A stretch of 38,574 nucleotides of DNA, taken from IMG/VR virus record IMGVR_UViG_3300045107_000833, positions 1-38,574 of that record, one strand, 5' to 3'. This document shows positions 1 through 11,235 of the stretch, in pieces (position 1 is the stretch's first letter; each line of letters begins with the position of its first letter). The notes under the pieces were generated by a model. That model saw only the letters and a list, made by a program, of their open reading frames with translations, was not told the origin of the DNA and ran no database searches. Origin of the DNA: a virus. A program made the translations under genes and the position numbers.

Positions 1-49
1 CTAGCCTTCCAAGCTTGTGATGCGGGTTCGATCCCCGCTACCCGCTCCA
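1..49 (+). tRNA. tRNA-Gly(TCC), 3' part only
   Basis: This is the 3' portion of a tRNA cut by the window edge. The anticodon loop is at 6-12 with anticodon TCC at 8-10. The anticodon 3' stem is at 13-17. The T-arm has a perfect 5-bp stem (22-26 with 34-38) and a TTCGATC loop. The 3' acceptor strand is at 39-45, the discriminator T at 46, and CCA is encoded at 47-49. The 5' half (acceptor, D-arm) lies outside the window. The visible 5' anticodon strand (1-5) pairs with 13-17 except for a T-T mismatch between bases 2 and 16. That may mean bases 1-2 are already outside the region of host-phage identity. Confidence 0.88.
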
Positions 50-7017: not shown

Positions 7018-7220
7018 GCCGCCGCACCTTCGCCCAGGTCCGCGCCGCCGCGATCGCGACCGAGCGCGCGGCAGCGCGGGCTTATGCTGAGACGTACATC
7101 GGCGAGGTGCGCGGCCAGATCGAGAAGGGCCGGATCTCGGCTTCCGAGGGCGACATGCTCGTGAGGCGGATCCGCGCTTTTGCCGATGGTCTCGAGCAGG
7201 GGTTGCACGTCGATGGCTGA
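7014..7220 (+). CDS. Small charged protein (68 aa)
   Basis: A short, nearly all-helical, Arg/Ala/Glu-rich protein beginning MSRRTFAQVRAA. The ATG overlaps the preceding TGA and the gene overlaps the DUF5131 start by 8 nt. No domain recognised; tight coupling is the main evidence. Confidence 0.65.
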   Translation: MSRRTFAQVRAAAIATERAAARAYAETYIGEVRGQIEKGRISASEGDMLVRRIRAFADGLEQGLHVDG

Positions 7221-8253
7221 CCGCACTTTGATCGAATGGGCCGACGCGACCTGGACGCCGGTCAAGGGCTGCACGCGAGTCTCGCCCGGTTGCGGCGGCC
7301 CCGGCCGCGAAGGCGGCTGCTACGCGGAGATCATGGCCGCGCGCTTCAGCAATCCCGGTCAGTGGGGCGAAGACCTCGCGAAGATCGTCACGCTACCGGA
7401 CGGGACGAAGGATCACCGCTGGACCGGCGTAATCCGGTTCGACGAGGCCGAGCTGCTCAAGCCGCTACGCTGGAAAGCGCCGCGGAAGGTGTTCGTCTGC
7501 TCGACCGCCGACCTGTTCCACGACGGGGTGACGGACGAGCAAATCGATCGCGTGTTCGCAGTTATGGCGCTGAGCCCGCAGCACACGTTTCAGGTGCTGA
7601 CGAAGCGATCGGCTCGCATGCGGCGCTACATCACTGATCGAGCGCGGATGGATTGGCTGAACGCCGAAATCGAGCACGTTGGACTTAAGGCGAGCGTCCC
7701 CACCAACTGTGTGTGCCGTTGCGATCGGGATGACGGAGACATCAGATGGCCGCTCCCGAACGTCTGGCTCGGCATCTCGACCGAGGATCAGACGCGCGCC
7801 GAGGAGCGCATTCCCGATCTGCTCGCCACGCGGGCGGCGGTGCGCTGGATCAGCGCCGAACCGCTGCTCGGGCCGATCGATCTGACCCAAAGCCTCTATA
7901 CAGGCGAGGGCGGAGTGGCGATGCGCGGCTACTTACGCAATCCCGCCGAGCCCGACGACTTTCACTTTTTCGCGAACAAGCTGGATTGGGTTGTCGCCGG
8001 CGGCGAGAGCGGCCCGGGCGCGCGGCCGATGCACCCGGATTGGGCGCGCTCGCTGCGCGACCAGTGCGCGGCGGCGGGCGTGCCGTTCCTTTTCAAGCAG
8101 TGGGGCGCCTATCTGCCGGCCGGTCAAGTTGCGGCGCAAACGGGGCCATGGGATCCCCGCTGCGGATCCAGTCTGCTGACCACAAAGAAGAACGCTGGCC
8201 GTCTGCTCGATGGCGTCCAGCACGACGGCTATCCGGCGAGGGTGGCAGCATGA
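7213..8253 (+). CDS. DUF5131 / phage Gp37-Gp68 family protein
   Basis: A 346-aa member of the Gp37/Gp68 (DUF5131) family. Recognisable blocks are TLIEWADATWTPVKGCTRVSPG at the N-terminus, VFVCSTADLFHDGV (about 93-106), VWLGISTEDQTRAEERIP (about 184-201), WISAEPLLGPIDL, DWVVAGGESGPGARP and FLFKQWG near the end. Three cysteines (Cys20, Cys27, Cys36) with a CYAE motif suggest an iron-sulphur, radical-SAM-like site. The second and third are 8 residues apart, wider than the C-x6-C-x2-C spacing I recall for many members, because of a GPGREGG insert. A further Cys cluster CVCRC lies at about 166-170. The biochemical role is not established. It is followed directly by DNA methyltransferases, so nucleotide or DNA modification is plausible. 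Confidence 0.88.
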   Translation: MADRTLIEWADATWTPVKGCTRVSPGCGGPGREGGCYAEIMAARFSNPGQWGEDLAKIVTLPDGTKDHRWTGVIRFDEAELLKPLRWKAPRKVFVCSTADLFHDGVTDEQIDRVFAVMALSPQHTFQVLTKRSARMRRYITDRARMDWLNAEIEHVGLKASVPTNCVCRCDRDDGDIRWPLPNVWLGISTEDQTRAEERIPDLLATRAAVRWISAEPLLGPIDLTQSLYTGEGGVAMRGYLRNPAEPDDFHFFANKLDWVVAGGESGPGARPMHPDWARSLRDQCAAAGVPFLFKQWGAYLPAGQVAAQTGPWDPRCGSSLLTTKKNAGRLLDGVQHDGYPARVAA

Positions 8254-10157
8254 GCGCAGTCACCGGCTTCATGGCGGGCGCGCTCGCCTTCACCCCGATC
8301 CAAGTGGACGGTCTGTTCATCGACGGCTTCGCCGGCGGCGGCGGCGCGTCCACCGGGATCGAGCAGGCGATCGGCCGCAGTGTCGATATCGCCATCAACC
8401 ACAGCCCGACCGCGATCGCGATCCACCGGGCCAACCACCCCGGCACGACGCATTTCTGCCAGGACATTAAGGCGGTCTGGCCGCTCGCGGCGACGCGGAT
8501 GCAGCCAGTGGCCGGCGCGTGGTTTTCCCCTGACTGCAAAGAGTTCAGCAAGGCGAAGGGCGGTCCGGTCAAGGATCGCAGCATCCGCGCGCTCTGCTGG
8601 GAGGTCGTGACCTGGCTGAAGGACGTGCGCCCGACGTGCGGCTATCTCGAGAACGTCGAGGAGTTCGAATATTCGGCGCCGCTCGACGAAGCCGGCAACC
8701 CGATCAAGGGCCAGGAGGGGCGCGAGTTCAAGCGTTTCGTCCGCGCGATCCGCGCGCTCGGCTATCGAGTGCAATGGCGCATCTTGAAGGCCTGCGACTA
8801 TGGTGCGCCGACCAGCCGCAAGCGCCTTTACATGGTGATGCGCTGCGATGGTCGCCCGATCGTCTGGCCGAAGCCGACCCATGGCGCGCCAGGCTCCCCG
8901 GGCGTGCGCTCGGGCAAGCTGCTGCCGTACCGGACCGCGGCCGAGTGCATCGATTGGAGCATCCCCTGCCCGTCCATCTTCGACCGCAAGCGCGAGCTCG
9001 CCCCGGCCACGAAGCGGCGGATCGCGCATGGTGTGATGCGCTACGTCGTGAACGCGGCCGAGCCGTTCATCGTGCCGGTGACGCACACCCAGACAAGCCC
9101 GCGCGCGCATGCCAGCTCGGAGCCGCTGCGGACGGTCACGACCGCGCACGGGGGTGAGTTCGCGGCGGTGGACGTCCAGGTCGCGCCCCACATCAACACA
9201 AACCGGAACTCAGCCAAGCCTTACACGGCCGGGAATGAGCCCACCCACACCATCACCGCCGAGGGTGCGCATCAGAACCTGGTAAGCGCCACCTTGGTCG
9301 GCGTCGGAGGCCGGCGTGGTCAAAGCCCGCCGATGCCGGTGAATGGGGTCTACCCTACCACGACGGCCAAAGCGGACGCGGCGCTTGCGGGCGTCTCGCT
9401 GGTGAAGATGGGCAACGGCGAGCGCGAGGGGCAGGATCCGCGCGCGCTCGACCCCGCCAAGCCGCTCGGCACTGTCACCGCGACGGGATCTCAGGCTGCA
9501 GCGGTCACCGCCTTCCTGTCGAGCTTCTACACGCAAGGCTCGAACAACCGCTCGGTCGCGAAGCCGCACCCGACCGTGATGGCCGAGAGCGGCAAGTCGG
9601 CTGTCGTCTGCGCGCACGTCGAGCAGGCGAACACAGGCATGGTCGGCCACACGCCGCGCAAGCCGCTGTCGACGATCGTCGGCAAGGGCTGCACGCAGCG
9701 CATCGTCGAGACCACGATGATCGAAGAGGGCGCGCTGCCGCCGGAGCTGATGTCGCGCGCTGTCCAGGTAGCGGCCTTCCTCGTGAAGTACTATGCCACC
9801 GACGGCGAGAACGAGGCGGCGCAGAGCCAGCGCGTCGATCGCCCGCTCGACTGCATCACGACGAAGGCGCGCTTCGCCGTCGTGACGGTCACGATCGACA
9901 CCCGCACCTATGTAATCGTCGACATCGGCCTGCGCATGCTGAAGCCGCGCGAGCTAGCGCGGGCGCAGGGCTTCCCGGATAGCTACGTGCTCGATCCGGA
10001 ATGCTGGTACACGACGAAGAGCGGCGCTCAGAAGTTCGGGCCGCTGCCGATCCATCATCAGATCAGCGCGATCGGGAACAGCGTCTGCCCGCCTGTCGCC
10101 CGGGCGCTCGTCGCAGCCAATCAGCCGAGCGATGCCGAGATGCGGAGGGCGGCGTGA
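8250..10157 (+). CDS. C5-cytosine DNA methyltransferase with repeated recognition region
   Basis: A 635-aa DNA (cytosine-5) methyltransferase. Motif I is FIDGFAGGGGAS (23-34). Motif IV is SPDCKEFSKAKGG with nucleophile Cys96. Motif VI is LENVEEF (133-139). Motif VIII is ACDYGAPTSRKRLYMV (181-196). Motifs IX-X are LKPRELARAQGFP and QISAIGNSVCPPVA. Residues about 291-550 (9120-9899), where the target-recognition domain lies, consist of about seven degenerate units of 33-60 residues. Each carries a P-L-x-T-V/I-T core, with prolines at 292, 331, 369, 405, 439, 472 and 532. The start ATG overlaps the DUF5131 stop (ATGA); a longer upstream frame is a shadow. It probably methylates phage DNA against host restriction. 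Confidence 0.93.
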   Translation: MSAVTGFMAGALAFTPIQVDGLFIDGFAGGGGASTGIEQAIGRSVDIAINHSPTAIAIHRANHPGTTHFCQDIKAVWPLAATRMQPVAGAWFSPDCKEFSKAKGGPVKDRSIRALCWEVVTWLKDVRPTCGYLENVEEFEYSAPLDEAGNPIKGQEGREFKRFVRAIRALGYRVQWRILKACDYGAPTSRKRLYMVMRCDGRPIVWPKPTHGAPGSPGVRSGKLLPYRTAAECIDWSIPCPSIFDRKRELAPATKRRIAHGVMRYVVNAAEPFIVPVTHTQTSPRAHASSEPLRTVTTAHGGEFAAVDVQVAPHINTNRNSAKPYTAGNEPTHTITAEGAHQNLVSATLVGVGGRRGQSPPMPVNGVYPTTTAKADAALAGVSLVKMGNGEREGQDPRALDPAKPLGTVTATGSQAAAVTAFLSSFYTQGSNNRSVAKPHPTVMAESGKSAVVCAHVEQANTGMVGHTPRKPLSTIVGKGCTQRIVETTMIEEGALPPELMSRAVQVAAFLVKYYATDGENEAAQSQRVDRPLDCITTKARFAVVTVTIDTRTYVIVDIGLRMLKPRELARAQGFPDSYVLDPECWYTTKSGAQKFGPLPIHHQISAIGNSVCPPVARALVAANQPSDAEMRRAA

Positions 10158-10495
10158 GAGCGCCGCGTCGGATCCGCCTTTCCCGAGCCAAGGGATGGCG
10201 ACTGCCGGATGGTGCAGTCAACTGCGCCCGACCAGGCCCGCTCGGCAATCCGTTCATTGTGGGCAAAGACGGTGATCGGGCACATTGCGTTGAGCTGCAC
10301 CGCGCACTCCTCGGGGGCCTGATCTGCTTGAGCGCTGGGCCGTCGATCGAGGCGCAGCAGGCACATGTAGAGGCGGTGCGGAAGGCGCTTCCCGATCTTC
10401 GCGGCCGGGATCTCGCCTGCTGGTGCGCTCTCGACGGTAAGCCTTGCCACGTCGACACGTACCTAGAGCTGGCAAATAGGGAGGCGGCCGCGTGA
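10154..10495 (+). CDS. DUF4326 domain protein
   Basis: A 113-aa protein with the DUF4326 pattern: a basic N-terminus, the block VNCARPGPLGNPFIVGKDGD (about 22-41), then LRGRDLACWCALDGKPCHVD (about 82-101) with its CWC...CH cluster and a final leucine-rich helix. GTG start at 10154 overlaps the methyltransferase TGA by 4 nt. Function of the family is unknown; it is frequent in phages beside DNA-modification genes, as here. Confidence 0.82.
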   Translation: MRAPRRIRLSRAKGWRLPDGAVNCARPGPLGNPFIVGKDGDRAHCVELHRALLGGLICLSAGPSIEAQQAHVEAVRKALPDLRGRDLACWCALDGKPCHVDTYLELANREAAA

Positions 10496-11235
10496 CTGCG
10501 AACCGCTCCACCGCCGTCATGCAGCGCCGATCAGTGCCACGCGGGCTCGACTACTTCCCCACCCCGCCCTTCGCCACCCGCGCGCTTATGATCGCGCTTG
10601 GCAAGCAGCTTGGCGGGCTCGAGTCTCTCCGCACCATGTCGGCGTGGGAGCCGGCGTGCGGCGAGCTGCACATGGCCAAGGTGCTGGCCGAGTTTTGCGA
10701 CCAGGTTCGGGCCAGCGACGTGTTCCGGTATTCGGCTGAGCACGAGCTAATCGACTTCACGCTGACCGGGTCGACTGAGCCGGAGGTCGACCTGATCGTC
10801 ACGAACCCGCCCTTTGCCGCGGCCGAGGCCTTCATCGCGACGGCACTTGGACGGGCCCGGCGCGCTGTGGCGATGCTTGTGCGGTCGGCCTTCCTCGAAG
10901 GCGGTGGCCGTCACGAGCGCCTCTTCGCGGTGACGCCGCCTACCCATGTGCTTCAGTTCGTCGAGCGGGTCGTGATGCTCGAAGGTCGCCTGGTGCGCGC
11001 GAACGAGCCTGATCCTTTCACTCAGGACGGGCGGTCGGTGCGATCCGCGACGGCCTACTGCTGGCTTGTCTGGATGATGGACGGGCCGGGCAAGGTGCTG
11101 GGTTGGCCTGCGATCGCAGAGACGAAGCTCATGTGGATCCCGCGCTGTCGTGAGCGACTCGAGCGGCCCGGCGACTATCCCGACTACGCCCGTGCGGTCG
11201 AGATCGCGCCTGCGCCTCTCCTGGAGGTCGCATGA
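10492..11235 (+). CDS. N6-adenine-type DNA methyltransferase
   Basis: A 247-aa class I SAM-dependent methyltransferase. DYFPTPPFATRAL (20-32) resembles motif X. AWEPACGELHMAKVL (51-65) is the SAM-binding motif I. NPPF (105-108) is the catalytic motif IV typical of amino-group DNA methyltransferases. The small size, with no separate recognition domain, fits an orphan phage enzyme. GTG start at 10492 overlaps the previous stop (GTGA), and the gene ends overlapping the zinc-ribbon gene. With the C5 enzyme it forms a two-methyltransferase block. Confidence 0.85.
   Translation: MTANRSTAVMQRRSVPRGLDYFPTPPFATRALMIALGKQLGGLESLRTMSAWEPACGELHMAKVLAEFCDQVRASDVFRYSAEHELIDFTLTGSTEPEVDLIVTNPPFAAAEAFIATALGRARRAVAMLVRSAFLEGGGRHERLFAVTPPTHVLQFVERVVMLEGRLVRANEPDPFTQDGRSVRSATAYCWLVWMMDGPGKVLGWPAIAETKLMWIPRCRERLERPGDYPDYARAVEIAPAPLLEVA

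What the first reader, a model, noticed from the sequence alone, without database searches (positions are those of the whole stretch)
9120..9899. Methyltransferase recognition region built of about seven degenerate repeats
Between motifs VIII and IX the C5 methyltransferase contains about seven units with a P-L-x-T-V/I-T core, spaced 33-60 residues apart. A repeat-based recognition domain could read a long site, several sites, or be a modular specificity array that recombines between phages.
Basis: partly seen in the sequence, partly recalled or inferred. Interest (0 to 1): 0.65.

Follow-up and report, generated by a model that had tools for sequence, protein, structure and literature searches.

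The report
Phage methyltransferase with swappable recognition-module array
A phage cytosine-methylating enzyme carries a row of seven look-alike but never identical recognition modules that related phages gain, lose and swap, which most likely lets one enzyme mark many different DNA sites against host restriction enzymes.

Summary
The C5-methyltransferase at 8250-10157 has seven units between motifs VIII and IX (aa 282-554), spaced 33-60 aa; six score far above shuffled controls, and the third is degenerate.

[quoted passage not shown] Related viral and bacterial loci carry 3-12 such units, about 39 aa each. Units fall into about 18 recurrent types that recur in different orders and neighbourhoods; one type, when present, is always last. 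Close relatives differ by whole-unit indels and block swaps inside near-identical genes. The window's sixth unit is 96% identical in DNA to a relative that is about 72% identical elsewhere. No array holds two similar units (0 of 4085 pairs at >=60% identity; about 34 expected).

Two prophage homologues from Paracoccus are published as methylating many sites (CCNGG, AGCT, CCGG and others).

Best explanation: a multispecific methyltransferase with a tandem TRD array, like Bacillus phage SPR, but in a separate lineage with larger, shuffled arrays. One-unit-one-target is inferred. AlphaFold could not resolve the array. New variant of a known kind.

The parts
8250..10157 (+). C5 cytosine DNA methyltransferase gene, 635 aa (P0001)
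   Evidence: PF00145 1.2e-26, phrog_116 1.8e-86, catalytic fold pLDDT >90 with Z 26.6 to HaeIII and 26.2 to HhaI methyltransferases
8322..8345 (+). motif I, DGFAGGGG (SAM binding)
   Evidence: invariant D, F, A, GGGG in 74 homologues
8526..8537 (+). motif IV, S-P-D-C, catalytic Cys96; Asp in place of the usual Pro before Cys
   Evidence: invariant S93 P94 D95 C96 in 74 homologues
8649..8657 (+). motif VI, E-N-V
   Evidence: invariant
8808..8825 (+). motif VIII, PTSRKR
   Evidence: P187 T188 R190 R192 invariant
9093..9191 (+). unit 1 (EPLRTVTTAHGGEFA; module type 4)
   Evidence: 16.8 bits with a profile of distant homologues; shuffle maximum 6.8
9210..9308 (+). unit 2 (EPTHTITAEGAHQNLV; type 12)
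   Evidence: 17.7 bits
9318..9416 (+). unit 3, degenerate (VYPTTTAKADAALA; type 17)
   Evidence: 2.8 bits alone, but same module type as PYPTTTAKADAA in relatives
9432..9530 (+). unit 4 (KPLGTVTATGSQAAAV; type 0)
   Evidence: 24.7 bits
9534..9632 (+). unit 5 (KPHPTVMAESGKSAVV; type 9)
   Evidence: 16.7 bits
9633..9731 (+). unit 6 (KPLSTIVGKGCTQRIV; type 6); recently exchanged
   Evidence: 13.0 bits; identical protein in L005 and L010, 96% DNA identity to L005 in a ~72% background
9732..9812 (+). longer link before the last unit (EEGALPPELMSRAVQVAAFLVKYYATD)
   Evidence: 60-residue spacing between units 6 and 7
9813..9911 (+). unit 7, terminal module (RPLDCITTKARFAVVTV; type 2), in the place of the ordinary TL motif before motif IX
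   Evidence: 12.7 bits; this type is last in the array in all 185 occurrences
9933..9977 (+). motif IX, RMLKPRELARAQGFP
10074..10091 (+). motif X, GNSVCP
   Evidence: G609 N610 V612 P614 invariant

Best explanation
A temperate-phage, multispecific C5 cytosine methyltransferase. One catalytic core carries a tandem array of seven small target recognition modules, each built on a TL motif (P-x-x-T-[VI]-T) with a variable polar loop 5-9 residues after the Thr. The core flips and methylates a cytosine; different modules dock different short sequences to the same active site, so one enzyme methylates several targets and protects the phage genome from several host restriction systems. Phages add, lose and exchange modules by recombination, changing the set of protected sites. 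Shown: intact catalytic motifs, the TL-type units, variable number, module types, indels, swaps, absence of near-duplicates within arrays. From literature on homologues: broad cytosine methylation. Inferred: one module per target, the anti-restriction role, and activity of this particular enzyme.
For: Core equals the published TL motif of C5-methyltransferase TRDs, P-[STCA]-P-T-[ILV]-[TASV], which lies 10-50 aa before motif IX, as the last unit does here (PMC2413257). 208 non-redundant arrays hold 3-12 units; stretch length rises 38.9 aa per unit, r = 0.93. 1374 units form ~18 recurrent types with many different neighbours; the terminal type is last in 185/185. Whole-unit indels and swaps between close relatives: L021/L022, L082/L078, L032/L051, L044/L056, seen in DNA as islands of 39-58% identity inside genes that are otherwise mostly 86-100% identical (L021/L022 and L194/L231). 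No within-array pair at >=60% identity in 4085 pairs; 33.9 expected (18-49) with position-matched permutation. Residues P+8 to P+12 are conserved within types and differ between types; P+8 to P+10 is the published DNA-contacting C-TL position. [quoted passage not shown] ARM81ld_p31, reported as relaxed (PMC5537653), has five units. Bacillus phages protect against many RM systems by arraying TRDs (PMC12707154).
Against: No structure: both AlphaFold models have pLDDT mostly under 50 across the array. Sequence similarity of the units to TRDs of M.SPR and M.SPbeta is weak (about 2 bits) though it falls on their TL motif. [quoted passage not shown] coli. No module has been tied to a target. Some units may be structural or silent. 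Module purging by recombination could contribute to the lack of near-duplicates.
Confidence: 0.72

Rival explanations
1. Relaxed, near-nonspecific enzyme: the array is a DNA-binding clamp or scaffold, and the core methylates a very short motif such as C in CC; the units do not each have a target.
For: Paracoccus homologues were read as modifying at least one C in CC, with partial protection of many sites.
Against: Module types with type-specific polar loops at the known DNA-contact positions, exchange of whole types, and arrays without near-duplicates are not needed for a nonspecific clamp; a clamp would be expected to grow by tandem duplication.
Confidence: 0.17
2. Composite reader: all units together read one long or split site, roughly one or two base pairs per unit, as in TALE-type arrays.
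For: Regular ~39-aa units in tandem, 3-12 per protein.
Against: Seven to twelve units reading four bases would have to reuse similar units, yet none of 4085 within-array pairs reaches 60% identity; homologues protect many short unrelated sites; the terminal TL unit alone has the position of an ordinary TRD.
Confidence: 0.05
3. Decayed array: only the last one or two units recognise DNA; the others are remnants kept or shuffled without selection.
For: Unit 3 lacks the leading Pro and scores poorly; Bacillus multispecific enzymes are known (own knowledge) to contain silent TRDs.
Against: Framework Pro and Thr are 98% and 93% conserved over 581 units, and reading frames stay open across 208 arrays.
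Confidence: 0.06

Closest known systems
Multispecific C5-methyltransferases of Bacillus phages (M.SPRI, M.SPbeta/phi3T, M.H2I)
   Same: One C5 core, several small contiguous recognition modules with TL motifs between motifs VIII and IX, found in temperate phages, modules differ between related phages; multiple short targets (published for Bacillus; broad methylation published for homologues of the window enzyme).
   Different: Different lineage: motif IV is SPDC instead of [FS]PC, units are only marginally alike in sequence, arrays reach 12 units with ~18 recurrent types over proteobacteria, firmicutes and (SPEC variant) actinophages.
Relaxed-specificity m5C methyltransferases of Paracoccus aminophilus prophages (JCM7686_0772/2655) and Aeromonas phage ARM81ld_p31
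   Same: Same family (by published identity to phi2LM21_p23 and by tblastn here); ARM81ld_p31 has SPDC and five units; Paracoccus relatives have 6-10.
   Different: Published as relaxed; the repeat array was not described in the passages read here.
M.HhaI / M.HaeIII (single-target C5-methyltransferases)
   Same: Catalytic fold (Z 26-27) and TL motif.
   Different: One TL motif, 327 and 324 aa instead of 635.
CmoX carboxymethyltransferase of phage S-B43 (8yf3)
   Same: Phage C5-type fold (Z 24.3).
   Different: CmoX has SPPC and recognises GC; window has SPDC and a repeat array.
TAL effectors
   Same: Tandem units of similar length suspected of reading DNA.
   Different: TALE repeats are nearly identical to each other (own knowledge); these are not.

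Membership tests
C5 cytosine DNA methyltransferase (PF00145) | Conserved motifs I, IV (Cys), VI (ENV), VIII, IX, X in order | tested here: met
   Pfam 94 bits against cut-off 22; invariant residues in 74 homologues; the Pro of the usual PC is Asp
C5 cytosine DNA methyltransferase (PF00145) | Class I methyltransferase catalytic fold | tested here: met
   AlphaFold catalytic part pLDDT >90; Z 26.6 HaeIII, 26.2 HhaI
Multispecific C5-methyltransferases with tandem TRDs (SPR type) | More than one TL-motif module between motifs VIII and IX of one core | tested here: met
   Seven units, six significant
Multispecific C5-methyltransferases with tandem TRDs (SPR type) | Modules gained, lost or exchanged between related phages | tested here: met
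Multispecific C5-methyltransferases with tandem TRDs (SPR type) | Each module confers an independent target | not testable with these tools
   Needs methylome with unit deletions; only broad methylation of homologues is published
Multispecific C5-methyltransferases with tandem TRDs (SPR type) | Modules homologous to the Bacillus phage TRDs | tested here: inconclusive
   Type 1 and 2 profiles pick the TL motif EPAFTVNTIDRHG in M.SPR and M.SPbeta at ~2 bits; 0 and 3 of 900 shuffles reach that; most other types do not
CmoX carboxymethyltransferase | SPPC motif IV | tested here: not met
   SPDC in window and all aligned relatives
CmoX carboxymethyltransferase | Arg that binds the carboxy group of Cx-SAM | not tested
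   Position not aligned here
TALE-like one-base-per-unit array | Near-identical units reused within an array | tested here: not met
   0 of 4085 within-array pairs at >=60% identity

The most novel reading that the evidence does not exclude
A shared, phage-wide library of about 18 or more TL modules, each reading its own short target, that phages of several bacterial phyla deal out in different combinations onto one methyltransferase core, so that the list of modules in a gene would predict its methylome (a readable, possibly engineerable methylation code).
Probability: 0.45. Interest if true: 0.75.

Novelty: new variant of a known kind. Interest (0 to 1): 0.56.

Why it matters
It offers an explanation for the puzzling 'relaxed' specificity reported for large m5C methyltransferases of proteobacterial phages, extends the tandem-TRD principle known from a few Bacillus phages to a large, widespread family with longer, shuffled arrays, and makes a concrete question testable: does each module type have its own target, so that a methylome can be read from the gene?

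Tried and rejected
AlphaFold2 on the window protein with 74 homologues and on a four-unit relative with 69: catalytic part good, array pLDDT mostly under 50, so no statement on the fold of the units; the structure comparison tests the catalytic part. Profile search of solved structures matched the catalytic parts only, not the units. General repeat profile against M.SPR and M.SPbeta: no score above shuffles; type-specific profiles gave weak but well-placed hits. Assigning targets from published C-TL trimers (GGCC = GRQ, GCGC = RHG, CGCG = HHG): none of the seven window units fits exactly (C-TL read as HGG, GAH, ADA, GSQ, SGK, GCT, ARF), so no target is proposed. A link to the upstream DUF5131 gene as a second modification step was considered and dropped: only 11 of 160 homologous loci carry a relative of it within about 3 kb. 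Literature searches for a description of these arrays found none in the papers held; the J Gen Virol 2016 paper on the ARM81 phages is not held, so a prior description cannot be excluded.

Full report
THE OBSERVATION. The window (a 38,574-base IMG/VR virus record) encodes a 635-aa C5 cytosine methyltransferase at 8250-10157. Pfam matches the catalytic halves only, leaving residues about 197-555 uncovered; PHROG places it in phrog_116. Residues 282-554 hold seven units with the core P-x-x-T-[VI]-T at spacings 39, 36, 38, 34, 33 and 60. The core occurs six times against 0.64 expected; 1 of 20,000 shuffles reached that. A profile built from 1162 units of distant relatives gives six units 12.7-24.7 bits against a shuffle maximum of 6.8 in 2000. 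Unit 3 is degenerate (2.8 bits) but is the same module as PYPTTTAKADAA in relatives. The units are not DNA repeats.

WHAT THE UNIT IS. The published consensus of C5-methyltransferase target recognition domains centres on P-[STCA]-P-T-[ILV]-[TASV], the TL motif, 10-50 residues before motif IX, and residues around it contact DNA in HhaI and HaeIII (PMC2413257 citing Vilkaitis 2000). The window's core is this motif, seven times (unit 3 lacks the first Pro, unit 7 has Cys for Thr), the last copy in the ordinary position. Over 581 units the Pro is 98% and the Thr 93% conserved. Each unit therefore looks like a minimal recognition module. This rests on the motif and its position: homology to the Bacillus phage modules is only marginally supported by profile scores, and two AlphaFold models could not resolve the array.

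NUMBER AND KIND OF UNITS. 240 related loci were fetched from viral and bacterial collections; the closest cellular relatives are in Sphingopyxis and Sphingobium, further ones in many proteobacteria, Paenibacillus, Bacillus, Enterococcus, clostridia and others. 208 non-redundant arrays hold 3-12 units; the stretch grows 38.9 aa per unit (r = 0.93). 1374 units cluster at 60% identity into 18 types with five or more members, some smaller ones and 80 singletons; types occur with up to 40 different left neighbours, and the type ending in KDRFGLVTV is last in all 185 cases. The window's array reads 4-12-17-0-9-6-2. Actinophage enzymes (Bialota, Dante) also have about five such units, with SPEC in motif IV; a short P2-like methyltransferase has none.

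MODULES MOVE. Close relatives differ by whole units and blocks: L021 and L022, two contigs from one isolate, are 98% identical in the catalytic part and 75% in the array, with a one-unit length difference; L078 lacks exactly one unit of L082; L051 lacks two of L032; L025 and L026 have essentially identical arrays on 88% identical catalytic parts. In DNA, L021/L022 and L194/L231 show islands of 39-58% identity within genes that are otherwise mostly 86-100% identical. The window's own unit 6 is identical in protein to those of L005 and L010 and 96% identical in DNA to L005, against about 72% elsewhere.

ARRAYS ARE NON-REDUNDANT. Among 4085 within-array pairs none reaches 60% identity, against 33.9 expected (range 18-49) when units are dealt out anew among arrays at matched positions. 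The same type is common across arrays, so this is not lack of similar units. A scaffold that grew by tandem duplication, or a one-base-per-unit code with four letters, should reuse units. The permutation does not model shared ancestry of whole arrays, and recombination between like units could remove some duplicates.

WHERE SPECIFICITY WOULD LIE. Within a unit, positions 8-12 after the Pro are conserved within a type and differ between types, mostly polar or charged; positions 8-10 fall on the C-TL trimer described as contacting DNA.

FUNCTION. [quoted passage not shown] The authors later noted that phi2LM21_p23 (44% identical to them) belongs with them, read their target as at least one cytosine in CC, found phi2LM21_p23 itself inactive in E. 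coli, and listed Aeromonas ARM81ld_p31 as relaxed (PMC5537653). phi2LM21_p23 and ARM81ld_p31 are in this family and carry about six and five units; complete Paracoccus relatives carry 6-10. Several modules with different targets would produce exactly such 'relaxed' behaviour, and Bacillus temperate phages are known to protect against many restriction systems by arraying recognition domains in one polypeptide (PMC12707154). A loose specificity without one-module-one-target remains the main rival.

KNOWN OR NEW. The principle (tandem TRDs on one C5 core) is known. What differs is the lineage (SPDC motif IV, invariant in 74 aligned relatives), the size of the arrays, the wide host range and the shared pool of recurring modules. 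No description of these arrays was found in the searchable papers, but one relevant paper is not held. I file it as a new variant of a known kind.

Noticed in passing
window 8526-8537; all aligned relatives: Motif IV reads S-P-D-C: an Asp stands where almost all C5-methyltransferases have Pro before the catalytic Cys. Actinophage relatives have SPEC, one Paracoccus relative SPTC. Effect on chemistry unknown.
   Followed up: partly
window 7180-8253: DUF5131 / phrog_2045 gene ends four bases into the methyltransferase gene, suggesting coupled translation; relatives of it lie near only 11 of 160 homologous methyltransferases.
   Followed up: partly
window 10154-10495: DUF4326 gene, probably starting at GTG 10154, overlapping the methyltransferase stop by four bases.
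   Followed up: no
window 10492-11235: Second DNA methyltransferase-like gene (phrog_799, NPPF motif, no Pfam match).
   Followed up: no
window 1-46: 3' part of a tRNA gene at the window's edge (Rfam tRNA, cut off at the 5' end), possibly a prophage attachment site.
   Followed up: no
L021 and L022: Two contigs of one isolate (IMG 2654588200) carry nearly identical methyltransferase cores with different module arrays.
   Followed up: yes
L249 (Pseudomonas phage F116) 1024-4741: Eight-unit cytosine methyltransferase sandwiched, with four-base overlaps, between two annotated adenine methyltransferases.
   Followed up: no
G054 (same genus as Paracoccus saliphilus locus L202), contigs C21 and C50: One genome holds two copies of the array methyltransferase on different contigs.
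   Followed up: no
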